Below are positions 3,412-22,000 of a stretch of 33,710 nt of DNA, piece after piece. This stretch comes from Acidobacteriota bacterium (GTDB lineage: Bacteria; Acidobacteriota; Blastocatellia; Pyrinomonadales; Pyrinomonadaceae), in contig JAKQII010000321.1 of NCBI GenBank assembly GCA_029557535.1, positions 1 through 33,710 of the forward strand, written 5' to 3'. The stretch's first letter is position 1. Each line of letters opens with the position of its first letter. The translations under genes were made by a program, and so were the position numbers. The notes below the pieces were generated by a model that searched no databases, was not told the origin of the DNA, and saw nothing but the letters and a program-made list of their open reading frames with translations.

Positions 3412-3487
3412 GGGCATGTACGTCAATTGGTAGACAGCCTCCCTTACAAGGAGGAAGTTAGGGGTTCGAGTCCCTTCGTGCCCACCA
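3412..3487 (+). tRNA. tRNA-Val (UAC)
   Basis: A 76-nt cloverleaf can be drawn by hand. The acceptor GGGCATG pairs with CGTGCCC. The anticodon stem CCTCC/GGAGG encloses loop CTTACAA with anticodon TAC at 3445-3447. The T-arm contains GGTTCGAGTCCC, and the 3' CCA is encoded (3485-3487). It is the first gene of a two-tRNA unit. Confidence 0.96.
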
Positions 3488-3577
3488 TCTTTGAAATTTT
3501 GGATTTTTGATTTTGGGTTTTGGATTCTTCGACTGCACGACAATCGAAAATCCAAAATCGAAAGTCTAAAATCGCCA
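3488..3577. repeat. Inverted heptanucleotide-type repeat pair between two tRNA genes
   Basis: GAAATTTTGGATTTTTGATTTTGGGTTTTGGATT is followed, after about 20 bp, by a run in the opposite orientation (CGAAAATCCAAAATCG, CTAAAATCG). The transcript can therefore fold into a long A/U-rich hairpin between tRNA-Val and tRNA-Asp. It belongs to the same family as the other spacer repeats. Confidence 0.7.
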
Positions 3578-3580
3578 CGC

Positions 3581-3657
3581 GGGGTCGTAGTTCAGATGGT
3601 TAGAACGCCAGCCTGTCACGTTGGAGGTCGCGGGTTCGAGCCCCGTCGGCCCCGCCA
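3581..3657 (+). tRNA. tRNA-Asp (GUC)
   Basis: A 77-nt cloverleaf. The acceptor GGGGTCG pairs with CGGCCCC (one G-U pair). The anticodon stem CCAGC/GTTGG encloses loop CTGTCAC with anticodon GTC at 3615-3617. The T-arm is GGTTCGAGCCCC, the discriminator base is G and the encoded CCA is at 3655-3657. Confidence 0.96.
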
Positions 3658-3722: not shown

Positions 3723-4670
3723 CTATTCGATCGATATCGTGATATCAACGTTCACGGCCTTTTCCGCCGAAACCTGCACGAAATAATCGCCGTTGCCGTT
3801 CAATCTTACCGGAAACTCTTCGGTTTCTTTCACTCTTTCGTTGCTCTCGTAAAGGCCTACATCGCCCCTGAAATCGACGAGTTGTAGGTTCACGTCCGGT
3901 GAATCCGCCGATATTTTCAAGATCTGCCCCTTCGACGCCCGGATCTTGAACCATTTGATCGGTTCACCCGGCGTCAGCCGGACGGTCAGGCTCTTGCTGG
4001 TTTTACCTTTATCGAACGCGACCATCGTTGCCGAATTCTTGTTCCACATCCGCCATTTTCCGGCAATCAGCTTTTTGGCCGATACGATAGTCGCGCCGGA
4101 CGGGGACTCTTCTTCGGTAAACTCATAAACCCTGACAGGCCTGTTGCTTGTCACCCGATATCCTTTGGTTTGATGGAAGCAGCAACCGTCCTTCGAATAG
4201 ACGTAGATCATTTTGTTTCGCGAATCGACTTTGAACATTCCGAGAGAGTACGTAAGTTTCGTCAGGGAATCGTTGTAAACAAACCTATTTGTCGATTTCG
4301 CAAAGAGATAGATCTTATAAACGGGCGAACCGTAGCCGCCTTCATTGCCGCCGTAGATCGCCAGATCCGTCGATCCGTCAAAATTGTAATCGCCAACGAA
4401 AAAGCTCGTCTGATCCTCGCTGTCGTAGGAAACTGTCTCGGGTGCGCCCGATTCCTCCGCGCAGCCCTTGATCGTTTTGAACTTCTGAAAAGCTTTGCTC
4501 TGGCCTTTCTTGAAAACCAAGACGTCAGACGGTCCGGCGTCGCCGTCAGCGTTGCACTTCGGCGAGATGACCTTGACGTCAAAATCGCCGGGAACATTGC
4601 TGATCACGTAAGTCTGTTGTGCCAGTGCGGACGTGCTGAAGAGCAAGACTGACAGGATAAATGCTTTCAT
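3723..4670 (-). CDS. Secreted XAC2610-like protein with C-terminal PPC-like domain
   Basis: A 315-residue protein with a signal peptide (MKAFILSVLLFSTSALAQ) and a good ribosome binding site (AAAGGAG, 7 bases before the ATG). Residues about 90-200 carry FFVGDYNFDGSTDLAIYGGN and YKIYLFAKSTNRFVYN, a pattern I associate with XAC2610-related periplasmic proteins and FG-GAP-like calcium-loop blades (D-x-N-x-D-G). A further aromatic and Cys-rich turn (KDGCCFHQTKGY) follows. The last 80 residues (KWFKIRASKGQILKISAD ... GNGDYFVQVSAEKAVNVDI) look like a pre-peptidase C-terminal beta-sandwich. The function is unknown; some XAC2610 relatives are proposed lysozyme inhibitors. It overlaps the upstream gene by 92 bp in another frame. 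Confidence 0.75.
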   Translation of the reverse strand: MKAFILSVLLFSTSALAQQTYVISNVPGDFDVKVISPKCNADGDAGPSDVLVFKKGQSKAFQKFKTIKGCAEESGAPETVSYDSEDQTSFFVGDYNFDGSTDLAIYGGNEGGYGSPVYKIYLFAKSTNRFVYNDSLTKLTYSLGMFKVDSRNKMIYVYSKDGCCFHQTKGYRVTSNRPVRVYEFTEEESPSGATIVSAKKLIAGKWRMWNKNSATMVAFDKGKTSKSLTVRLTPGEPIKWFKIRASKGQILKISADSPDVNLQLVDFRGDVGLYESNERVKETEEFPVRLNGNGDYFVQVSAEKAVNVDITISIE

Positions 4671-5302: not shown

Positions 5303-6289
5303 CTAGGGGGCCCACACACGCGTGACGGAGTACCTCGTACTACCGTTTATCTTTACTTCTTTGGTCCAGAGATCCAGTTGAATATTGGTTCCGTCGGCTT
5401 TTCTGAGGTAAACAGACCACTCATCCCGGCCCGTTTCCACCAATCTGGCCACTTCGACGTTGTTGAGGGTATACAAGACCCAGACCTTTCCCTGAATTTG
5501 CCGGTATTTGCCGGTTCCCGCCCCGCCATATTCGACCGTTGTCACGTTGAGGCCGTTGACCTGCGATGTCTTCGGCTGTTGCGTGGTAACCGGTATTGTG
5601 ATTGCCGTCGGCGAAATATTTGCAAAGTTGCCGATTATCTTCTGAGGCGTTGAGCACTCGGCAGTAGAGATGGTGTAGCGGAAGTACTGGTCACCACTAA
5701 AGAAATACGCAATGCCATTGCCAAGATTGACTGCCGAATCGACACTGCCCCAAGCCGGCCAGTTTTTCGCGAAATTGCCGGCGATCGGCTTGGGTGGTCC
5801 CTGTACTCTTCCGGAGCTGATCTCGTACCTGATATACTCCCTCCCCTTGAAAAAATAGACATTGCCATTGCCCAGATTCGTCGCTGCATCCACGGTGTCC
5901 CAATTCGGCCAGTTACTGGCGAAGTTTCCGGCAATAGGACTGGGTCCTCCCGAGGTACCTGGCTTCAATCCCAAGCGAACGTATTCCCGTCCCCTGAAGA
6001 TGTAGATGTTGTTGTTAAATTGCGTTGCCGCGTCTATATGGTCCCAACCGGCGTTATATTTTTCCCCGGTAAGGTAATCAAATGAAGAGTTCGTCCTTGT
6101 CAAGGTGCCTGAATTAAGGGAGTAAATTGAATAAAGCTCATCATCGAAGAAGTACGCAGTCCCGGAAGTGTTCGGCTTCAATACTGCGGCACTGTAGTTC
6201 CAGGATTGAGCCTTGACGCATGGGTTCGCGACGAAGATGAAGCCGAAGCAAAATATGGCCATTTTGAACGTTGCAAGTTGTCTTTTCAT
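5303..6289 (-). CDS. Secreted hemopexin-repeat protein A
   Basis: The start is taken at 6289 (AGGAG 5 bases upstream, followed by signal peptide MKRQLATFKMAIFCFGFIFV...KAQ); an upstream in-frame ATG at 6418 would add 43 uncharged-signal-lacking residues and is rejected. The 328-residue product has four hemopexin-like blades at about 33-78, 84-125, 132-174 and 182-222. Each carries a D-A/S-A-x-N-L-G-N-G and YFF-x-G-x-x-Y-x-R-Y signature, with the spacer PIAGNFAxNWPxW. The C-terminal domain (245-327) contains TGRDEWSVYL and NIQLDLWTKEV, a pattern I believe occurs in other bacterial secreted proteins but cannot name. Hemopexin propellers bind proteins, haem or glycans; the ligand here is unknown. 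It is paralogous to the next gene upstream (6512-7429). Confidence 0.85.
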   Translation of the reverse strand: MKRQLATFKMAIFCFGFIFVANPCVKAQSWNYSAAVLKPNTSGTAYFFDDELYSIYSLNSGTLTRTNSSFDYLTGEKYNAGWDHIDAATQFNNNIYIFRGREYVRLGLKPGTSGGPSPIAGNFASNWPNWDTVDAATNLGNGNVYFFKGREYIRYEISSGRVQGPPKPIAGNFAKNWPAWGSVDSAVNLGNGIAYFFSGDQYFRYTISTAECSTPQKIIGNFANISPTAITIPVTTQQPKTSQVNGLNVTTVEYGGAGTGKYRQIQGKVWVLYTLNNVEVARLVETGRDEWSVYLRKADGTNIQLDLWTKEVKINGSTRYSVTRVWAP

Positions 6290-6511
6290 TGTTTCTCCTA
6301 TTCTCTCCCCCTGGTCTGGATTTCGCCCGGCAATCTGAAGTCCACGCGGATGTGCGAAGTCGTTCTTCCGCTTTTCAATCGGATCCGCCAAGAACCCGGC
6401 ATCGATCGGTTTTCTCAATTCAGTTCGATTGTGTGGCCGATCTTCCGGCGACGAAGTTAACCGCCTCCGGATTGTGATCTCATCCGCGCGTATGACTGCG
6501 AATGCCAGGGG

Positions 6512-7429
6512 CTAGTTGGTTTGCACGTAACAGGCTTTCACCTTTCCGGGCGCCGGGTCTCTGCCGAAGTTCCTGGTGTTGCAGGTTATGCTGCCATTCA
6601 CTGTCTTGAAGACGTATCCGCTTGAACGGTTGTAACCATAGGCAACCTGTTGGGTTCCGTTAACGCGGCACACCGTTCCCTCGGATGCGCAGATCCGGGA
6701 ATTAGGCCATTGTCGGGGGCCCTCGGGCTTCTCTACCGATGCGGTGTTCACCGGAGGCGAATACCAATTGCCAAAGTTAGGGATTACCGGCACCGGAGCC
6801 TCAGTCTTCGCCGTGGAGATCGTGTAAAGGAAGTACTGGTCACCCTTGAAGAAGGCAACCTTGCCGTTTCTCAGGTTCAAAGCTGCATCGACATAGTTCC
6901 AATTTGGCCAGGTTACGGCGAAGTTGCCCACGATCGGCGTTGGATCGTTCTCAACCTTCCCCGAGCTGATGTTGTATCTGATGTAGTCCCTGCTATGGAA
7001 GAAGTAGACAATTCCATTGCCGAGATTGACGGCGGCATCCACATAAGTCCAACCGCCGGGCCAGTTGCCGGCGAAATTACCCGCGATCTTCATCCGTTGT
7101 CCACGGGAGGCGCCCAGTCCGACGCCCAGACGAACATATTCCGAACCCAGGAACAGGTATATGCTGCCGTTGAACTGCGTGGCAGCGTCAATACTGTTCC
7201 AGTCCCGAAAGTTGTGCCCGCCGATGTCCGAGATCGACCGGAGTCCCATTATCTGTCGTGTGGGAACAATGTAGTCCCGGTAATTTGGTCCGGTGAACAA
7301 CATCGCAGAACGATTATCGAGAGGCCATTCCACCGCCGCGCCAAGCGTGTTCCAGGTTTGAGCCGTTGCTGTTACCGCTGCGGCCAACATAAGACCCATG
7401 ATCAGGATCGTCGAAATTTGTCTTTTCAT
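6512..7429 (-). CDS. Secreted hemopexin-repeat protein B with Cys-rich C-terminal domain
   Basis: A 305-residue protein with signal peptide MKRQISTILIMGLMLAAAVTATAQ; AGGTGG lies 9 bases before the ATG. Four hemopexin-like blades (about 31-75, 80-122, 129-175, 179-222) share SIDAATQFNGSIYLF, YVDAAVNLGNGIVYFF and KGDQYFLYTISTAK with protein A. Instead of the DEWSVYL domain, the C-terminus (245-305) is a four-Cys module: CASEGTVCRVNGTQQVAYGY ... C283 ... FGRDPAPGKVKAC. This CAsEGxxCxxxGTxxVxYG pattern recurs, to my recollection, at the ends of secreted carbohydrate-active and lectin-like proteins. The two paralogues therefore keep one propeller and swap the tail. Neither has a lipobox or an obvious enzymatic motif. 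Confidence 0.85.
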   Translation of the reverse strand: MKRQISTILIMGLMLAAAVTATAQTWNTLGAAVEWPLDNRSAMLFTGPNYRDYIVPTRQIMGLRSISDIGGHNFRDWNSIDAATQFNGSIYLFLGSEYVRLGVGLGASRGQRMKIAGNFAGNWPGGWTYVDAAVNLGNGIVYFFHSRDYIRYNISSGKVENDPTPIVGNFAVTWPNWNYVDAALNLRNGKVAFFKGDQYFLYTISTAKTEAPVPVIPNFGNWYSPPVNTASVEKPEGPRQWPNSRICASEGTVCRVNGTQQVAYGYNRSSGYVFKTVNGSITCNTRNFGRDPAPGKVKACYVQTN

Positions 7430-7573: not shown

Positions 7574-7867
7574 TCACGAATCGTTCGGGTCTGGCCGTAT
7601 GATCGTTTTGTCATCGATCAAGCTCATAATCGATGACAAACACACAACGACCGATTTGTCTCTTGACTCGACCGAATGTGCGGCGTCGTTCTCCAATACC
7701 CGAAAGATCGCGCTTTGACTGATTCCGAGAGAACGGGCCACTTCTTTCGCGTCGAGCATTACCGTGCCACACTGCGGGCACAGGATCTCCTTTTTCAGCG
7801 CTCGATCGGCAACGATGAACCGACGTTTGGTGATTGTCGAGATTCTTAACTTTCGTTTGAATTCCAT
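7574..7867 (-). CDS. Small CPxCG helix-turn-helix protein
   Basis: I place the start at ATG 7867 (97 residues); the 54 residues upstream of it in the same frame look non-coding and cross the start of the divergent regulator. The order is a basic N-terminus (MEFKRKLRISTITKRRF), a CPQCG knuckle (C30, C33), an HTH segment about 39-60 (AKEVARSLGISQSAIFRVLE) and a short tail with C76. The layout (basic strand, CxxC, MerR/excisionase-like HTH, then the end) matches a family of small proteins I have seen in Acidobacteriota. Binding to DNA is likely by similarity; the target is unknown. It diverges from the lectin-domain regulator across about 110 bp, so it may take part in regulating that gene or share its promoter region. 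Confidence 0.65.
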   Translation of the reverse strand: MEFKRKLRISTITKRRFIVADRALKKEILCPQCGTVMLDAKEVARSLGISQSAIFRVLENDAAHSVESRDKSVVVCLSSIMSLIDDKTIIRPDPNDS

Positions 7868-7977
7868 TGGATATTTGGTAGAATTCGTCCGTCCCTGTCG
7901 GCGTCGAACTGGCCGTAATTTACAAGCTGCCGCGACAGAAAGTCCTGATAGAATTCGGATAATTTTTCGGATAAAAC

Positions 7978-9738
7978 TTGGATAGTCGTAAACCGTTGCA
8001 AACACGCGAAACACTTGAATTTGGTGCATTCCGGATCGATTCCGAAAGGCGAAGTCTGCGGCACGGTGAGGACATTGTTCCGCTTACGCCCAAGGAACTG
8101 GAAGTCCTTGTTTTCCTCGTCGAGCACTCCGGAGAGGTCGTTCAAAAGAATCAGCTTCTCGATGCGGTTTGGCCGGATGTTTTTGTCGAAGAGGCGACGC
8201 TCGCGCGGAATATTTCGTGGTTGAGAAAGAAACTGGCCGACTATGAAGATGGTGACGACCTGATCGAAACGGTTCCGAAACGGGGCTACCGGTTTGCCGG
8301 CGGTCTGATCAATGAGGCGGAATCTGAGAATTTGTTGATCGTCGAGGAAGAAACCGTTCGACAGTTTGAACTTGAGGAAAATATCTCGCTCACCAGTTCC
8401 GAGCTGTTGGAGGCCTATCGTGAAGTTTCCGGTATCAAGTCGCCGACCGCGACGGAAGTTGTCGCTGCTTCACGGGCGGTGAAATCAAGTAATCTGGCTT
8501 ACTTCGTCATCGGAACGATCGCCCTTCTCGGGATCGGTCTATTGCTATTCAACGTTTACTTCAAAGGTCCGGGAAACGATCGACGGTTTGCCGGCGTAAC
8601 CTCCACGCCTTCTTCGACTGTGAATCTCGCTCTTGGAAAACCGACCCGCCAGTCGAGCGATGCCGAAAAGAACCGTGGATTGTCATACGAGGCGGTTGAC
8701 GGAAACACCAACGGCAACTGGTTCGAGGCTTCCGTTTCATCAACGGGGAATGATCGAAATGACAAGGTGATGGTTTACGGAACAACGGATCCGTGGTGGG
8801 AAGTGGACCTCGGGGGCGTATACGAAATTCATCAGGTCAAAATCTACCTCAAGACCGACTTGCGCAGCCAGTTCCTCGACAACTTCCGAGTCGACGTGAA
8901 GGACAGTCCCGGTGACAATTATCGGCCGTTTGTCGGAGGAATATTGAAATATGAAGACTTTCGGTCCAGTCCGATCGTACTAACCAACGACGTCAAAGCC
9001 GGTTTCGTCAGGATTCAGATGGTCGGTGCGAGCCGGACATTGTATCTGGCGGAGGTGGAGGTTTTAGGGACTCCGATGCCGGGCGAGAACTACGAGATTC
9101 CTTCGAACTGCCTTCCGAATGACACGCAGATAAGTCTCTTTCCTGAACCGCAATTCCGCGGAGAATGCAGAATTCTGGATCGTCGAAACTACCAAAACCC
9201 GGAGTCGATGGGCGGTGGAACCGGTGAGTTCTATTCACTTTTGGTCGGCACGGATGTAAAAGCGGTTGTGTGCGACGATGTCGACTTCAAAGGAAATTGC
9301 GAAGCGATAATCGCGCAGCGATCGTTTGAAAAGCCAGTTCTATCAGTGAAGATGGCTGACTACTTCAAATTGAAGGACAAGTCGGGCAGTTGCCTCGAAA
9401 CAGGGTCCGAATACTCACGCGGCTCGTCAGCTGTAAGTATGAAACCCTGTGACGACAATGCGAATCAGAATTGGTTCTGGTCCGAATGGGGTGAATTGAG
9501 AATCTCCGCCCGCAAGTGCCTGGATCTGACCGAAGCCGATCAGGTCGTCGCAACGGCATGCGACAAACGAAGGCAGCTCAGAGAGCGTGCACAGCGCTGG
9601 GTCTGGACGCTGAGCGACGAAATCCGCACCGCTACCCGAAACAAAACCTGTCTCACGGTGACGCCTGACGGAACTGTCATGCTCGAAGGTTGCATCTTTA
9701 AGGAAGATCAGATCTGGAGTTTCGAAAAACTACCCTAG
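7978..9738 (+). CDS. Membrane-tethered winged-helix regulator with three extracytoplasmic lectin-like domains
   Basis: A 586-residue one-component regulator. Residues 13-107 form an OmpR/CadC-type winged helix (LTPKELEVLVFLVEHSGEVV, LDAVWPDVFVEEATLARNIS, LIETVPKRGYRFAGG). An acidic linker leads to a single membrane helix (173-192). Outside are an F5/8-type C (discoidin/fucolectin-like) domain (215-364: NLALGKPTRQSS, AVDGNTNGNW, PWWEVDLGG), a beta/gamma-crystallin-like segment (384-452: ISLFPEPQFRGEC, VCDDVDFKGNCE) and a ricin-B-type trefoil (462-584) with Q-x-W signatures QNW, QRW and QIW. The predicted topology puts DNA binding in the cytoplasm and the lectin-like part in the periplasm. CadC-like proteins usually carry TPR, WD40 or small sensor domains there. 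The TTG start is uncertain; the true start may lie a few codons downstream. Both hemopexin genes are close by and are candidate targets. Confidence 0.88.
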   Translation: MDSRKPLQTRETLEFGAFRIDSERRSLRHGEDIVPLTPKELEVLVFLVEHSGEVVQKNQLLDAVWPDVFVEEATLARNISWLRKKLADYEDGDDLIETVPKRGYRFAGGLINEAESENLLIVEEETVRQFELEENISLTSSELLEAYREVSGIKSPTATEVVAASRAVKSSNLAYFVIGTIALLGIGLLLFNVYFKGPGNDRRFAGVTSTPSSTVNLALGKPTRQSSDAEKNRGLSYEAVDGNTNGNWFEASVSSTGNDRNDKVMVYGTTDPWWEVDLGGVYEIHQVKIYLKTDLRSQFLDNFRVDVKDSPGDNYRPFVGGILKYEDFRSSPIVLTNDVKAGFVRIQMVGASRTLYLAEVEVLGTPMPGENYEIPSNCLPNDTQISLFPEPQFRGECRILDRRNYQNPESMGGGTGEFYSLLVGTDVKAVVCDDVDFKGNCEAIIAQRSFEKPVLSVKMADYFKLKDKSGSCLETGSEYSRGSSAVSMKPCDDNANQNWFWSEWGELRISARKCLDLTEADQVVATACDKRRQLRERAQRWVWTLSDEIRTATRNKTCLTVTPDGTVMLEGCIFKEDQIWSFEKLP

Positions 9739-20154: not shown

Positions 20155-20853
20155 TCAGCTTTGTCCGGGGTTAAAACGATAACCGACCCACGGTTCCGTC
20201 ACAATATATTGAGGTTCTGAAGGGTCCTTTTCGATCTTTTTCCGCAGCTGCCCGACAAAAACCCGCAGATATTCGGATTGGCCGGTGAAATTCCCGCCCC
20301 AAACAGCGCCCAGCAATGTCCTTTGCGTCAGGACCTTTCCCGGATGACTGACGAAATAGACGAGCAGGTCGTACTCCTTTGGGGTCAGGTGGATCGTCTT
20401 TTCATCGACGGTGACTTCGCGCGAGTCGAGATCGATACGAAGATCACCTGAGCTAAGGATGTTCACGGTCTCGGACGGACGCGTGCGACTTCGCCTCTGA
20501 ACTGCCCGGAGCCGCGCCAGCAGCTCCTCGATCCCGAACGGCTTTGTCACGTAGTCGTCGGCACCTGCATCGAGAGCTTCGACCTTTATCCTTTCCTCGC
20601 CTTTGACGGAAAGAACGACGATCGGCGTTTCCGAGTCGGCGCGGATCTGACGGCACAACTCAAGACCGGTCATTCCGGGCATCACAAGATCGGTGACGAT
20701 GACATCCGGCGACCAACTGGCCGCGATCTCCAGCGCGTCGAATCCGTTGTCCGCATACCGTGTGTCATAGCCGTTCGCGATCAACCCGGTCGTCAGAACC
20801 CGAACGATCTGCGGCTCGTCATCAACGATCAGGATCCGTGGTTTCGTTTCCAT
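20155..20853 (-). CDS. kdpE: KdpE response regulator
   Basis: A 232-residue OmpR-family regulator from ATG 20853 (METKPRILIVDDE). ATG 20865 is possible, but the GGAG would then touch it. The receiver domain has D11/D12, phospho-acceptor D55 (VIVTDLVMPG) and K104 (VTKPF). The C-terminal winged helix has LTPKEYDLLVYFVSHPGKVL, LRVFVGQLRKKIE and TEPWVGYRF, matching KdpE. The start overlaps the kinase stop by about 32 bp, so the two are co-translated. It should activate kdp transcription on K+ limitation, and the phased 11-bp array 28 bp downstream of its stop is the predicted target. Confidence 0.96.
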   Translation of the reverse strand: METKPRILIVDDEPQIVRVLTTGLIANGYDTRYADNGFDALEIAASWSPDVIVTDLVMPGMTGLELCRQIRADSETPIVVLSVKGEERIKVEALDAGADDYVTKPFGIEELLARLRAVQRRSRTRPSETVNILSSGDLRIDLDSREVTVDEKTIHLTPKEYDLLVYFVSHPGKVLTQRTLLGAVWGGNFTGQSEYLRVFVGQLRKKIEKDPSEPQYIVTEPWVGYRFNPGQS

Positions 20854-22000
20854 ACTCTTGATCATCTCCAATTGGCAAAGTAAACGAGAATTTCGCTCCG
20901 ATCTTGCCGTCAGTGACCGAAATCGTCCCGCCGTGGGCTTCGATGATGCCCTTCGCGATCGCCAAACCGAGGCCCGTTCCGGGGGAGGCGCGCCCGCGGA
21001 AAGGGATCCTGACGAACTTCTCGAAGATGGCGTCCCGGTCTTTCGGAGCGATTCCGGGCCCCTCGTCTTCAACTGTGAACACAAGATGTCCGGAATCCAG
21101 CCGAGCCGAAGAAACAACTATCGCCGTCCCGTCCGGCGAGTACTTGACCGCATTTTCGATTAGGGAATACAGGACCTCGGAAACGGCGCGCGCATCGACC
21201 CTGATCACCGGAAGATCCGGGTCAATCGACACGATCAGCCGATGTTTATCAAGTCTGCTGCGAATTCGCGCCACGGCGGCCTGAACGATCTCCTCGACCG
21301 AATCCCATCTCGCCGTGACCGACAATTCGCCGGATTCTATCTTAGCAAGTTCGATCATTCCCTCCACGAAATGATCGAGCCGGTCCGCTTCCTCGTTTAT
21401 GACGAGCAACATATCGCGCTTCATCTCCGTCGTCAGGATCGAATCTGCCGGATTCCTATCGCGATCGTTTAGCAAAGTCGTAACGGACGCCTTTATTGAT
21501 GTCAGCGGCGTTCGAATATCATGCGTTACGGCATCGAGGAGCGCAGACTTTAGTTTGGCGCTTTGCTTAAGCGCTTCGGCGTGGCTTGCCTTCTCAAACG
21601 CTTCGTTCAGTTCGTAGTACAGGCGCGAGATCTGGTCGTTTGCCGCTTCGGCCTGGAGCGCGCGTTCCTTCAGCCGCGCCGACAGTTGGCCCGCGGTCAG
21701 GGCAACGACCAGAAAAGCGGCCAACGCGACCCAGTTCTCGGGATCGGAGATCGTCAGTGTTCCGGTCGGCGGCAGGAAGAAATAGTTGAAACACAGCACC
21801 GCTACTATCGACGCGAGCAACGCCGGCCGGCTCCCCCAGACAGTGGCGACGAGGAGCACGATCAGAAGCAGGCAGAAGGCGACACCTGTGATCGAGATGT
21901 ACTGTTGGATAGGTTCAACAACGAATACAACGGCGATCGTACCGAGGCCCGCAACGACGTAGCCAATTATTGATCGGCTGCTGATGGGGTCAATGGGCAT
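20822..22000 (-). CDS. KdpD C-terminal histidine kinase (DUF4118 + HisKA + HATPase)
   Basis: A 392-residue kinase equal to the second half of KdpD. It has four closely packed membrane helices with short periplasmic loops (about 10-110, DUF4118 type, including RPALLASIVAVLCFNYFFLPP), a coiled segment, HisKA with H160 (AVTHDIRTPLTSIKAS), the N-box ENAVKYSPDG (N283), EDEGPGI and GTGLGLAIAKGIIEAHGG. The KdpD ATP/USP input domains are absent here and encoded by 13041-14228. It is followed by kdpE with an overlap. All catalytic boxes are intact, so it should autophosphorylate and pass phosphate to KdpE. Confidence 0.94.
   Translation of the reverse strand: MPIDPISSRSIIGYVVAGLGTIAVVFVVEPIQQYISITGVAFCLLLIVLLVATVWGSRPALLASIVAVLCFNYFFLPPTGTLTISDPENWVALAAFLVVALTAGQLSARLKERALQAEAANDQISRLYYELNEAFEKASHAEALKQSAKLKSALLDAVTHDIRTPLTSIKASVTTLLNDRDRNPADSILTTEMKRDMLLVINEEADRLDHFVEGMIELAKIESGELSVTARWDSVEEIVQAAVARIRSRLDKHRLIVSIDPDLPVIRVDARAVSEVLYSLIENAVKYSPDGTAIVVSSARLDSGHLVFTVEDEGPGIAPKDRDAIFEKFVRIPFRGRASPGTGLGLAIAKGIIEAHGGTISVTDGKIGAKFSFTLPIGDDQEYGNETTDPDR

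What the first reader, a model, noticed from the sequence alone, without database searches (positions are those of the whole stretch)
7978..9738. One-component transcription factor with three stacked extracytoplasmic lectin-like domains
The sequence shows an OmpR/CadC winged helix, one membrane helix, then discoidin/fucolectin-like, crystallin-like and ricin-B-like modules in one chain. CadC-type regulators are known with other periplasmic sensors; I know of no described example with this three-module glycan-binding set. The simple model is a membrane-bound regulator that reads sugars or glycans outside and acts on DNA without a phosphorelay.
Basis: partly seen in the sequence, partly recalled or inferred. 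Interest (0 to 1): 0.85.

Follow-up and report, generated by a model that had tools for sequence, protein, structure and literature searches.

The report
Membrane gene regulator with lectin-like sensor
A bacterium carries a gene switch anchored in its membrane whose outer part is built from three sugar-binding-type modules, and relatives show that such outer parts are swapped on a conserved inner half, so this looks like a flexible way to turn signals outside the cell (perhaps glycans) directly into gene expression.

Summary
Window 7978-9738 encodes a 586-aa protein: OmpR-type winged helix (Pfam 8e-21), one membrane helix (aa 173-194), then an F-type-lectin/F5/8C module, a beta/gamma-crystallin module and a ricin-B trefoil. 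All ten cysteines lie in the last two modules, which fits an outside location. I found this exact set in no other genome searched (119 of the family, 162 of the class, 396 of the phylum; overlapping samples). It is not an isolated oddity: it belongs to a well-supported clade of 21 membrane regulators that share the inner half but carry different sensors (MIR-type trefoils, LecA-like domains, propellers, or this trio). The clade shares a predicted operator of four TYGGAT half-sites 11-12 bp apart at the regulator's own start, and a divergent small CCHC/HTH gene, often followed by secreted lectin-type proteins. In the sister locus (G007) a crystallin-ricin pair sits in the divergent secreted protein; here it sits in the regulator, so modules seem to move between sensor and target. 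Glycan binding is untested, and the fucose-binding triad of the F-type module is lost. Verdict: new variant of ToxR/CadC-type transmembrane regulators, in a clade that I found nowhere described.

The parts
7978..9738 (+). Regulator CDS, 586 aa, TTG start
   Evidence: Intact ORF; inner half conserved in relatives
8077..8295 (+). OmpR-type winged helix, aa 34-106
   Evidence: PF00486 8.4e-21
8494..8559 (+). Single membrane helix, aa 173-194
   Evidence: Mean hydropathy 2.45 over 19 residues, no charge inside
8614..9072 (+). F-type lectin / F5/8C (CBM47-like) module, aa 213-365
   Evidence: PF00754 6.7e-11; FBP32 5e-19, 2j22 2e-13; homologues to 1.6e-19
9106..9327 (+). Beta/gamma-crystallin-type module, aa 377-450
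   Evidence: Homology to crystallin-type proteins of relatives 2.8e-15; joint profile hits protein S 1.5e-14; below the Pfam cut-off on its own
9364..9717 (+). Ricin-B beta-trefoil module, aa 463-580, three QxW motifs
   Evidence: PF00652 5.8e-13; place; AF2 model and Foldseek to CBM13
7944..7983 (+). Predicted operator: CCTGAT 7944, TCGGAT 7955, TCGGAT 7967, TTGGAT 7978 (spacing 11/12/11), the last overlapping the start codon
   Evidence: 18 of 18 clade loci, 0 of 500 shuffles each; in 16 of 16 in-clade and 0 of 13 out-of-clade pairs
7574..7867 (-). Small partner gene, 97 aa, CxxC/H/C and HTH-like, divergent to the regulator
   Evidence: 29 of 30 loci of this family are divergent to a winged-helix regulator; alignment
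6512..7429 (-). Secreted hemopexin-repeat protein 1 with C-terminal domain A
   Evidence: PF00045 1.5e-15; domain A 40% identical to the G007 divergent protein
5303..6289 (-). Secreted hemopexin-repeat protein 2 with C-terminal domain B (ORF opens at 6418; Met start before the signal peptide at 6289 assumed)
   Evidence: PF00045 4.3e-22; domain B 54% identical to the G007 protein
3723..4670 (-). Secreted protein shared with the G007 locus
   Evidence: BLASTP 7e-40, 38% over 212 columns

Best explanation
This is a ToxR/CadC-type transmembrane one-component regulator. Its cytoplasmic winged helix binds four tandem TYGGAT half-sites between its own gene and a divergent operon (small HTH-type protein, then secreted hemopexin-type proteins). 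Its extracytoplasmic F-type/crystallin/ricin tail senses a ligand, most likely a glycan or a glycosylated surface. Ligand binding would change the clustering or dimerisation of the winged helices on the repeats and so set expression of the regulator and of the divergent secreted proteins. Shown: the architecture, the divergent gene order, operator-like repeats that occur together with one type of recognition helix, and exchange of sensors just outside the membrane helix among relatives. Inferred: DNA binding, direction of control, topology and class of ligand.
For: Domains. Membrane helix and Cys only in the tail; homologues of the modules are in proteins with signal peptides. Inner half conserved, sensor exchanged after the membrane helix. 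Divergent partner gene in 29 of 30 loci. Operator-like repeats in 18 of 18 clade loci, in 16 of 16 in-clade and 0 of 13 out-of-clade pairs, with helix motif RN[VI]SWLR in 19 of 21 clade rows and 0 of 30 outside.
Against: The fucose triad of the F-type module and the calcium motif of the crystallin module are lost, so sugar binding cannot be assumed. The scoring of the repeats was chosen after seeing the alignment. The exact architecture is known from one draft genome. No experiment.
Confidence: 0.55

Rival explanations
1. Same regulator, but the tail is a protein-interaction or envelope-state sensor, not a glycan reader: lectin folds that have lost their sugar sites now bind, for example, the divergently encoded secreted proteins and give feedback on their export.
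For: Lost fucose triad and calcium motif; crystallin+ricin pair shared with a sister locus's secreted protein; propeller-type sensors in the same clade.
Against: Ricin module keeps three QxW motifs; other clade members carry LecA-like domains, a sugar-binding family; no partner binding shown.
Confidence: 0.27
2. Same regulator acting through proteolysis: the tail controls cleavage near the membrane and the winged helix acts once released.
For: Some TTRs are controlled by proteolysis (TcpP, PMC11323476, abstract). Nothing in this sequence speaks for it.
Against: No co-encoded protease seen next to it; not needed for the tandem-repeat model.
Confidence: 0.1
3. Chance fusion, decaying gene or assembly artefact: a secreted lectin-like gene joined to a regulator by accident.
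For: Exact architecture seen once, in a draft of 404 contigs; canonical ligand residues lost.
Against: Intact 586-aa frame with even GC3 along the gene; junction just after the membrane helix, as in sister regulators; operator and gene order kept; modules far diverged from every homologue found, so not a fresh fusion.
Confidence: 0.05

Closest known systems
ToxR/CadC-type transmembrane transcription regulators (TTRs; PMC10269533, PMC5430869)
   Same: N-terminal OmpR-type winged helix, one membrane helix, C-terminal outer domain, no phosphorelay domain.
   Different: The outer part is three lectin-type modules; far below the CadC equivalog cut-off (56.7 against 400 bits); divergent small HTH-type partner.
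TfoS and ChiS of Vibrio cholerae (PMC11856585)
   Same: Membrane-held regulators that turn an outside glycan signal (chitin oligosaccharides) directly into transcription.
   Different: I did not compare sequences; from general knowledge their DNA-binding and sensor domains are of other families. Works alike, not claimed as family.
Sister regulators of the same clade: MIR-type trefoil (L070, L072), LecA-like (L069, L073) and propeller-like sensors (L067)
   Same: Winged helix, membrane helix, operator-like repeats, divergent small gene.
   Different: Sensor domains of other folds.
F-type lectins / CBM47 (FBP32, 2j22; PMC5712786)
   Same: Sequence and fold family of the first outer module.
   Different: Fused to a regulator; fucose-binding triad and contiguous Cys pair lost.
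Divergent secreted crystallin+ricin protein of G007 (L067:5026-6384)
   Same: Crystallin and ricin modules in the same order, BLASTP 3e-17.
   Different: There they form part of a secreted protein, here the sensor of the regulator.

Membership tests
ToxR/CadC-type TTR | N-terminal OmpR-type winged helix | tested here: met
   PF00486 8.4e-21
ToxR/CadC-type TTR | Single membrane helix between DNA-binding part and sensor | tested here: met
   Hydropathy, one peak at aa 173-194
ToxR/CadC-type TTR | No receiver or kinase domain | tested here: met
   No such Pfam hit
ToxR/CadC-type TTR | Sensor outside the cytoplasm | tested here: inconclusive
   Ten Cys all in the tail, homologues secreted; no fusion assay
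ToxR/CadC-type TTR | Regulates transcription while in the membrane | not testable with these tools
   Needs experiment; operator-like repeats only
CadC (equivalog NF007540) | Score above the curated cut-off | tested here: not met
   56.7 against 400 bits
F-type lectin | Sequence and fold family | tested here: met
   FBP32 5e-19; PF00754, PF22633
F-type lectin | His-Arg-Arg fucose triad and contiguous Cys | tested here: not met
   SVSST...KTDLRSQF in place of SVTHT...RTDCCxxR (PMC5712786)
Beta/gamma-crystallin | Pfam PF00030 gathering score | tested here: not met
   12.9 against 25 bits
Beta/gamma-crystallin | Homology to crystallin-type proteins | tested here: met
   2.8e-15 to a relative; joint profile to protein S 1.5e-14
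Beta/gamma-crystallin | Calcium motif [ND][ND]xx[ST]S | tested here: not met
   TGEFYS in the window, NDSISS in relatives
Ricin-B trefoil | Pfam gathering score, three QxW motifs | tested here: met
   49.6 against 29 bits; QNW, QRW, QIW in the sequence; CBM13 by Foldseek

The most novel reading that the evidence does not exclude
A clade of bacterial membrane regulators keeps one DNA-binding half, one operator and one small partner protein, while its outer sensor is exchanged for lectin-type modules drawn from the same pool as the secreted proteins it controls, so that regulator and target read the same ligand: sensor and effector trade domains across a divergent promoter.
Probability: 0.3. Interest if true: 0.78.

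Novelty: new variant of a known kind. Interest (0 to 1): 0.62.

Why it matters
Transmembrane one-component regulators are common, but what most of them sense is unknown. Here the outer parts are recognisable lectin families on a conserved inner half with a predicted shared operator, so ligand and signalling can be tested with simple chimeras. The crystallin+ricin pair, found in a regulator here and in the secreted target of the sister locus, suggests a route by which new sensors arise. The small CCHC/HTH partner gene is a family without a Pfam or NCBIfam model for the window copy.

Tried and rejected
Cytoplasmic tail: unlikely from the cysteine distribution and from homologues with signal peptides. 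Coding explanation of the upstream repeats: rejected, because the window copy has two in-frame TAA codons there and most copies are spaced 11 bp, not a multiple of three. Genome-wide regulon: GGATN{7,8}GGATN{7,8}GGAT occurs 12 times in the genome, but only the copy at 7957 has AT-rich spacers like the clade sites, so this crude pattern gives no wider regulon. Strict sensor-target matching as a rule: not supported, since MIR-type regulators face crystallin or lipoprotein genes. The same three-module set elsewhere: not found in the family, class or phylum samples, nor among the ricin or best PA-IL hits; the single genome-contig hit is a Flavobacteriaceae protein with F5/8 modules and no winged helix. 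One alignment over all three modules for AF2 failed, so only crystallin+ricin was modelled. The organism's name was not established; Acidobacteriota/Pyrinomonadaceae is a guess that I did not test.

Full report
CHECK. The ORF 7978-9738 (586 aa, TTG start) is intact. Pfam supports the winged helix, the F5/8C module and the ricin-B module above their gathering scores; the crystallin module alone is below its cut-off. It is nevertheless homologous to crystallin-type secreted proteins of relatives (2.8e-15; alignment), and a profile of that group, to which the relatives contribute seven of eight rows, finds protein S, spherulin 3a and clostrillin. The F5/8C module is closest to F-type lectins/CBM47. 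AF2 of crystallin+ricin (13 sequences) gave mean pLDDT 77, with ricin/CBM13 structures as the best PDB matches; confidence is lower in the second half of the crystallin part. There is one membrane helix (aa 173-194), no Cys before aa 378 and ten from there on.

NOT CANONICAL LECTIN SITES. Most F-type homologues carry a SVTHT...RTDCCxxRL pattern; the window copy reads SVSST...KTDLRSQFL, so the fucose triad described for the family (PMC5712786) is gone. The crystallin calcium motif is gone too. The ricin module keeps three QxW motifs, with one clear CLD repeat. A sugar ligand is possible but cannot be read from the sequence.

UNIQUENESS. Searching the sensor part in 119 family, 162 class and 396 phylum genomes (overlapping samples) found only partial matches, in other ORFs. 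Winged-helix HMM scans of the fetched loci found no second fusion with F5/8, crystallin or ricin modules (at 1e-10 for the earlier loci, at 1e-3 for the later ones). The three same-genus genomes held have no match to the sensor part at the thresholds used.

FAMILY OF SWAPPED SENSORS. The winged helix plus membrane helix has clear relatives: G007 is 52% identical over aa 1-196, and similarity ends just past the membrane helix. A tree of 50 winged-helix rows gives a starred 21-row clade with the window copy sister to G007 (100/98) (root at the midpoint). The sensors in that clade, labelled by simple motifs, are: ten three-repeat trefoils without a Pfam model (alignment; AF2 pLDDT only 62, best PDB matches MIR-type trefoils of Pmt4, SDF2 and RyR/IP3R), two LecA-like (PF07828), seven propeller-like, one cut off by a contig end, and the window's trio.

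CONSERVED GENE ORDER. Of 30 loci found with the small protein itself, 29 have a winged-helix regulator divergent to it; the thirtieth (L099) shows none within the fetched stretch. The small family has invariant or near-invariant C30, C33, H64 and C76, and a weak HTH_17 signal in 7 of 22 members; no Pfam or NCBIfam model recognises the window copy, and its profile has no convincing PDB match. In the loci I read, secreted proteins lie downstream of it: crystallin, crystallin+ricin, other secreted or lipoprotein genes, or, here, two hemopexin proteins.

OPERATOR. Between the two genes, four half-sites TYGGAT spaced 11-12 bp run up to the regulator's start in 18 of 18 clade loci, with none of 500 dinucleotide shuffles reaching the score in each. 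The scoring was written after seeing the alignment, so that test is not blind. The comparison across the family is the stronger control: 16 of 16 in-clade and 0 of 13 out-of-clade divergent pairs have it, and the helix motif RN[VI]SWLR is present in 19 of 21 clade rows and in none of 30 outside. The in-clade loci are related, so they are not independent. Tandem direct repeats are a known kind of target of OmpR/PhoB-type winged helices (PhoB on pho box direct repeats, PMC3348028). A promoter-like match reading towards the regulator lies at 7857-7884 (weak, 0.3 expected), which would put the repeats downstream of that promoter and upstream of the divergent one; self-repression with activation of the divergent operon is my inference.

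MODULES MOVE BETWEEN REGULATOR AND TARGET. In G007 the divergent secreted protein is crystallin + ricin + domain A + domain B. In the window, domains A and B are the C-termini of the two hemopexin proteins (40% and 54% identity), a further gene is shared (7e-40), the small genes match, and the crystallin+ricin pair is in the regulator (3e-17, same order). Of 119 family genomes only four match domains A or B, and A and B occur together at one locus only in the window and in G007. Direction and mechanism of the move are unknown; two independent recruitments are not excluded.

LITERATURE. The TTR survey (PMC10269533) does not mention lectin, discoidin or trefoil sensors in its text; chitin-responsive TTRs are known (TfoS, ChiS, PMC11856585). 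The searches made here found no described lectin-sensor regulator of this kind; most subscription papers are not covered.

VERDICT. Real, unusual, and part of a larger, testable clade; a new variant of a known kind. The glycan-reading step remains a hypothesis.

Noticed in passing
L070:6741-8009 (-), L072:4103-5377 (+) and relatives: Sister regulators carry a ~215-aa three-repeat sensor without a Pfam model; AF2/Foldseek points to MIR-type beta-trefoils (low confidence, pLDDT 62).
   Followed up: partly
L069:6479-7855 (-), L073:283-1668 (+): Membrane regulators with PA-IL (LecA-like) domains as sensor, two stretches each.
   Followed up: partly
window 7574-7867 (-): Small CCHC/HTH-type protein family without a curated model for the window copy, almost always divergent to winged-helix regulators in this bacterial family.
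   Followed up: yes
L179/L182 (G004:C145): A 551-aa ORF with a crystallin-like module and two copies of the rare domain A.
   Followed up: no
window 20155-21117 (-): A second OmpR-type winged-helix ORF (320 aa) in the window, distant from the one studied.
   Followed up: no
window 3412-3657 (+): tRNA-Val and tRNA-Asp genes at the edge of the hemopexin/regulator locus, a possible site of gene gain.
   Followed up: no
L099 (G070:C76): The only copy of the small gene among 30 without a winged-helix regulator in the fetched stretch.
   Followed up: no
L076:3156-3479 (+): A second copy of the small gene about 3.5 kb from the divergent pair in G059.
   Followed up: no
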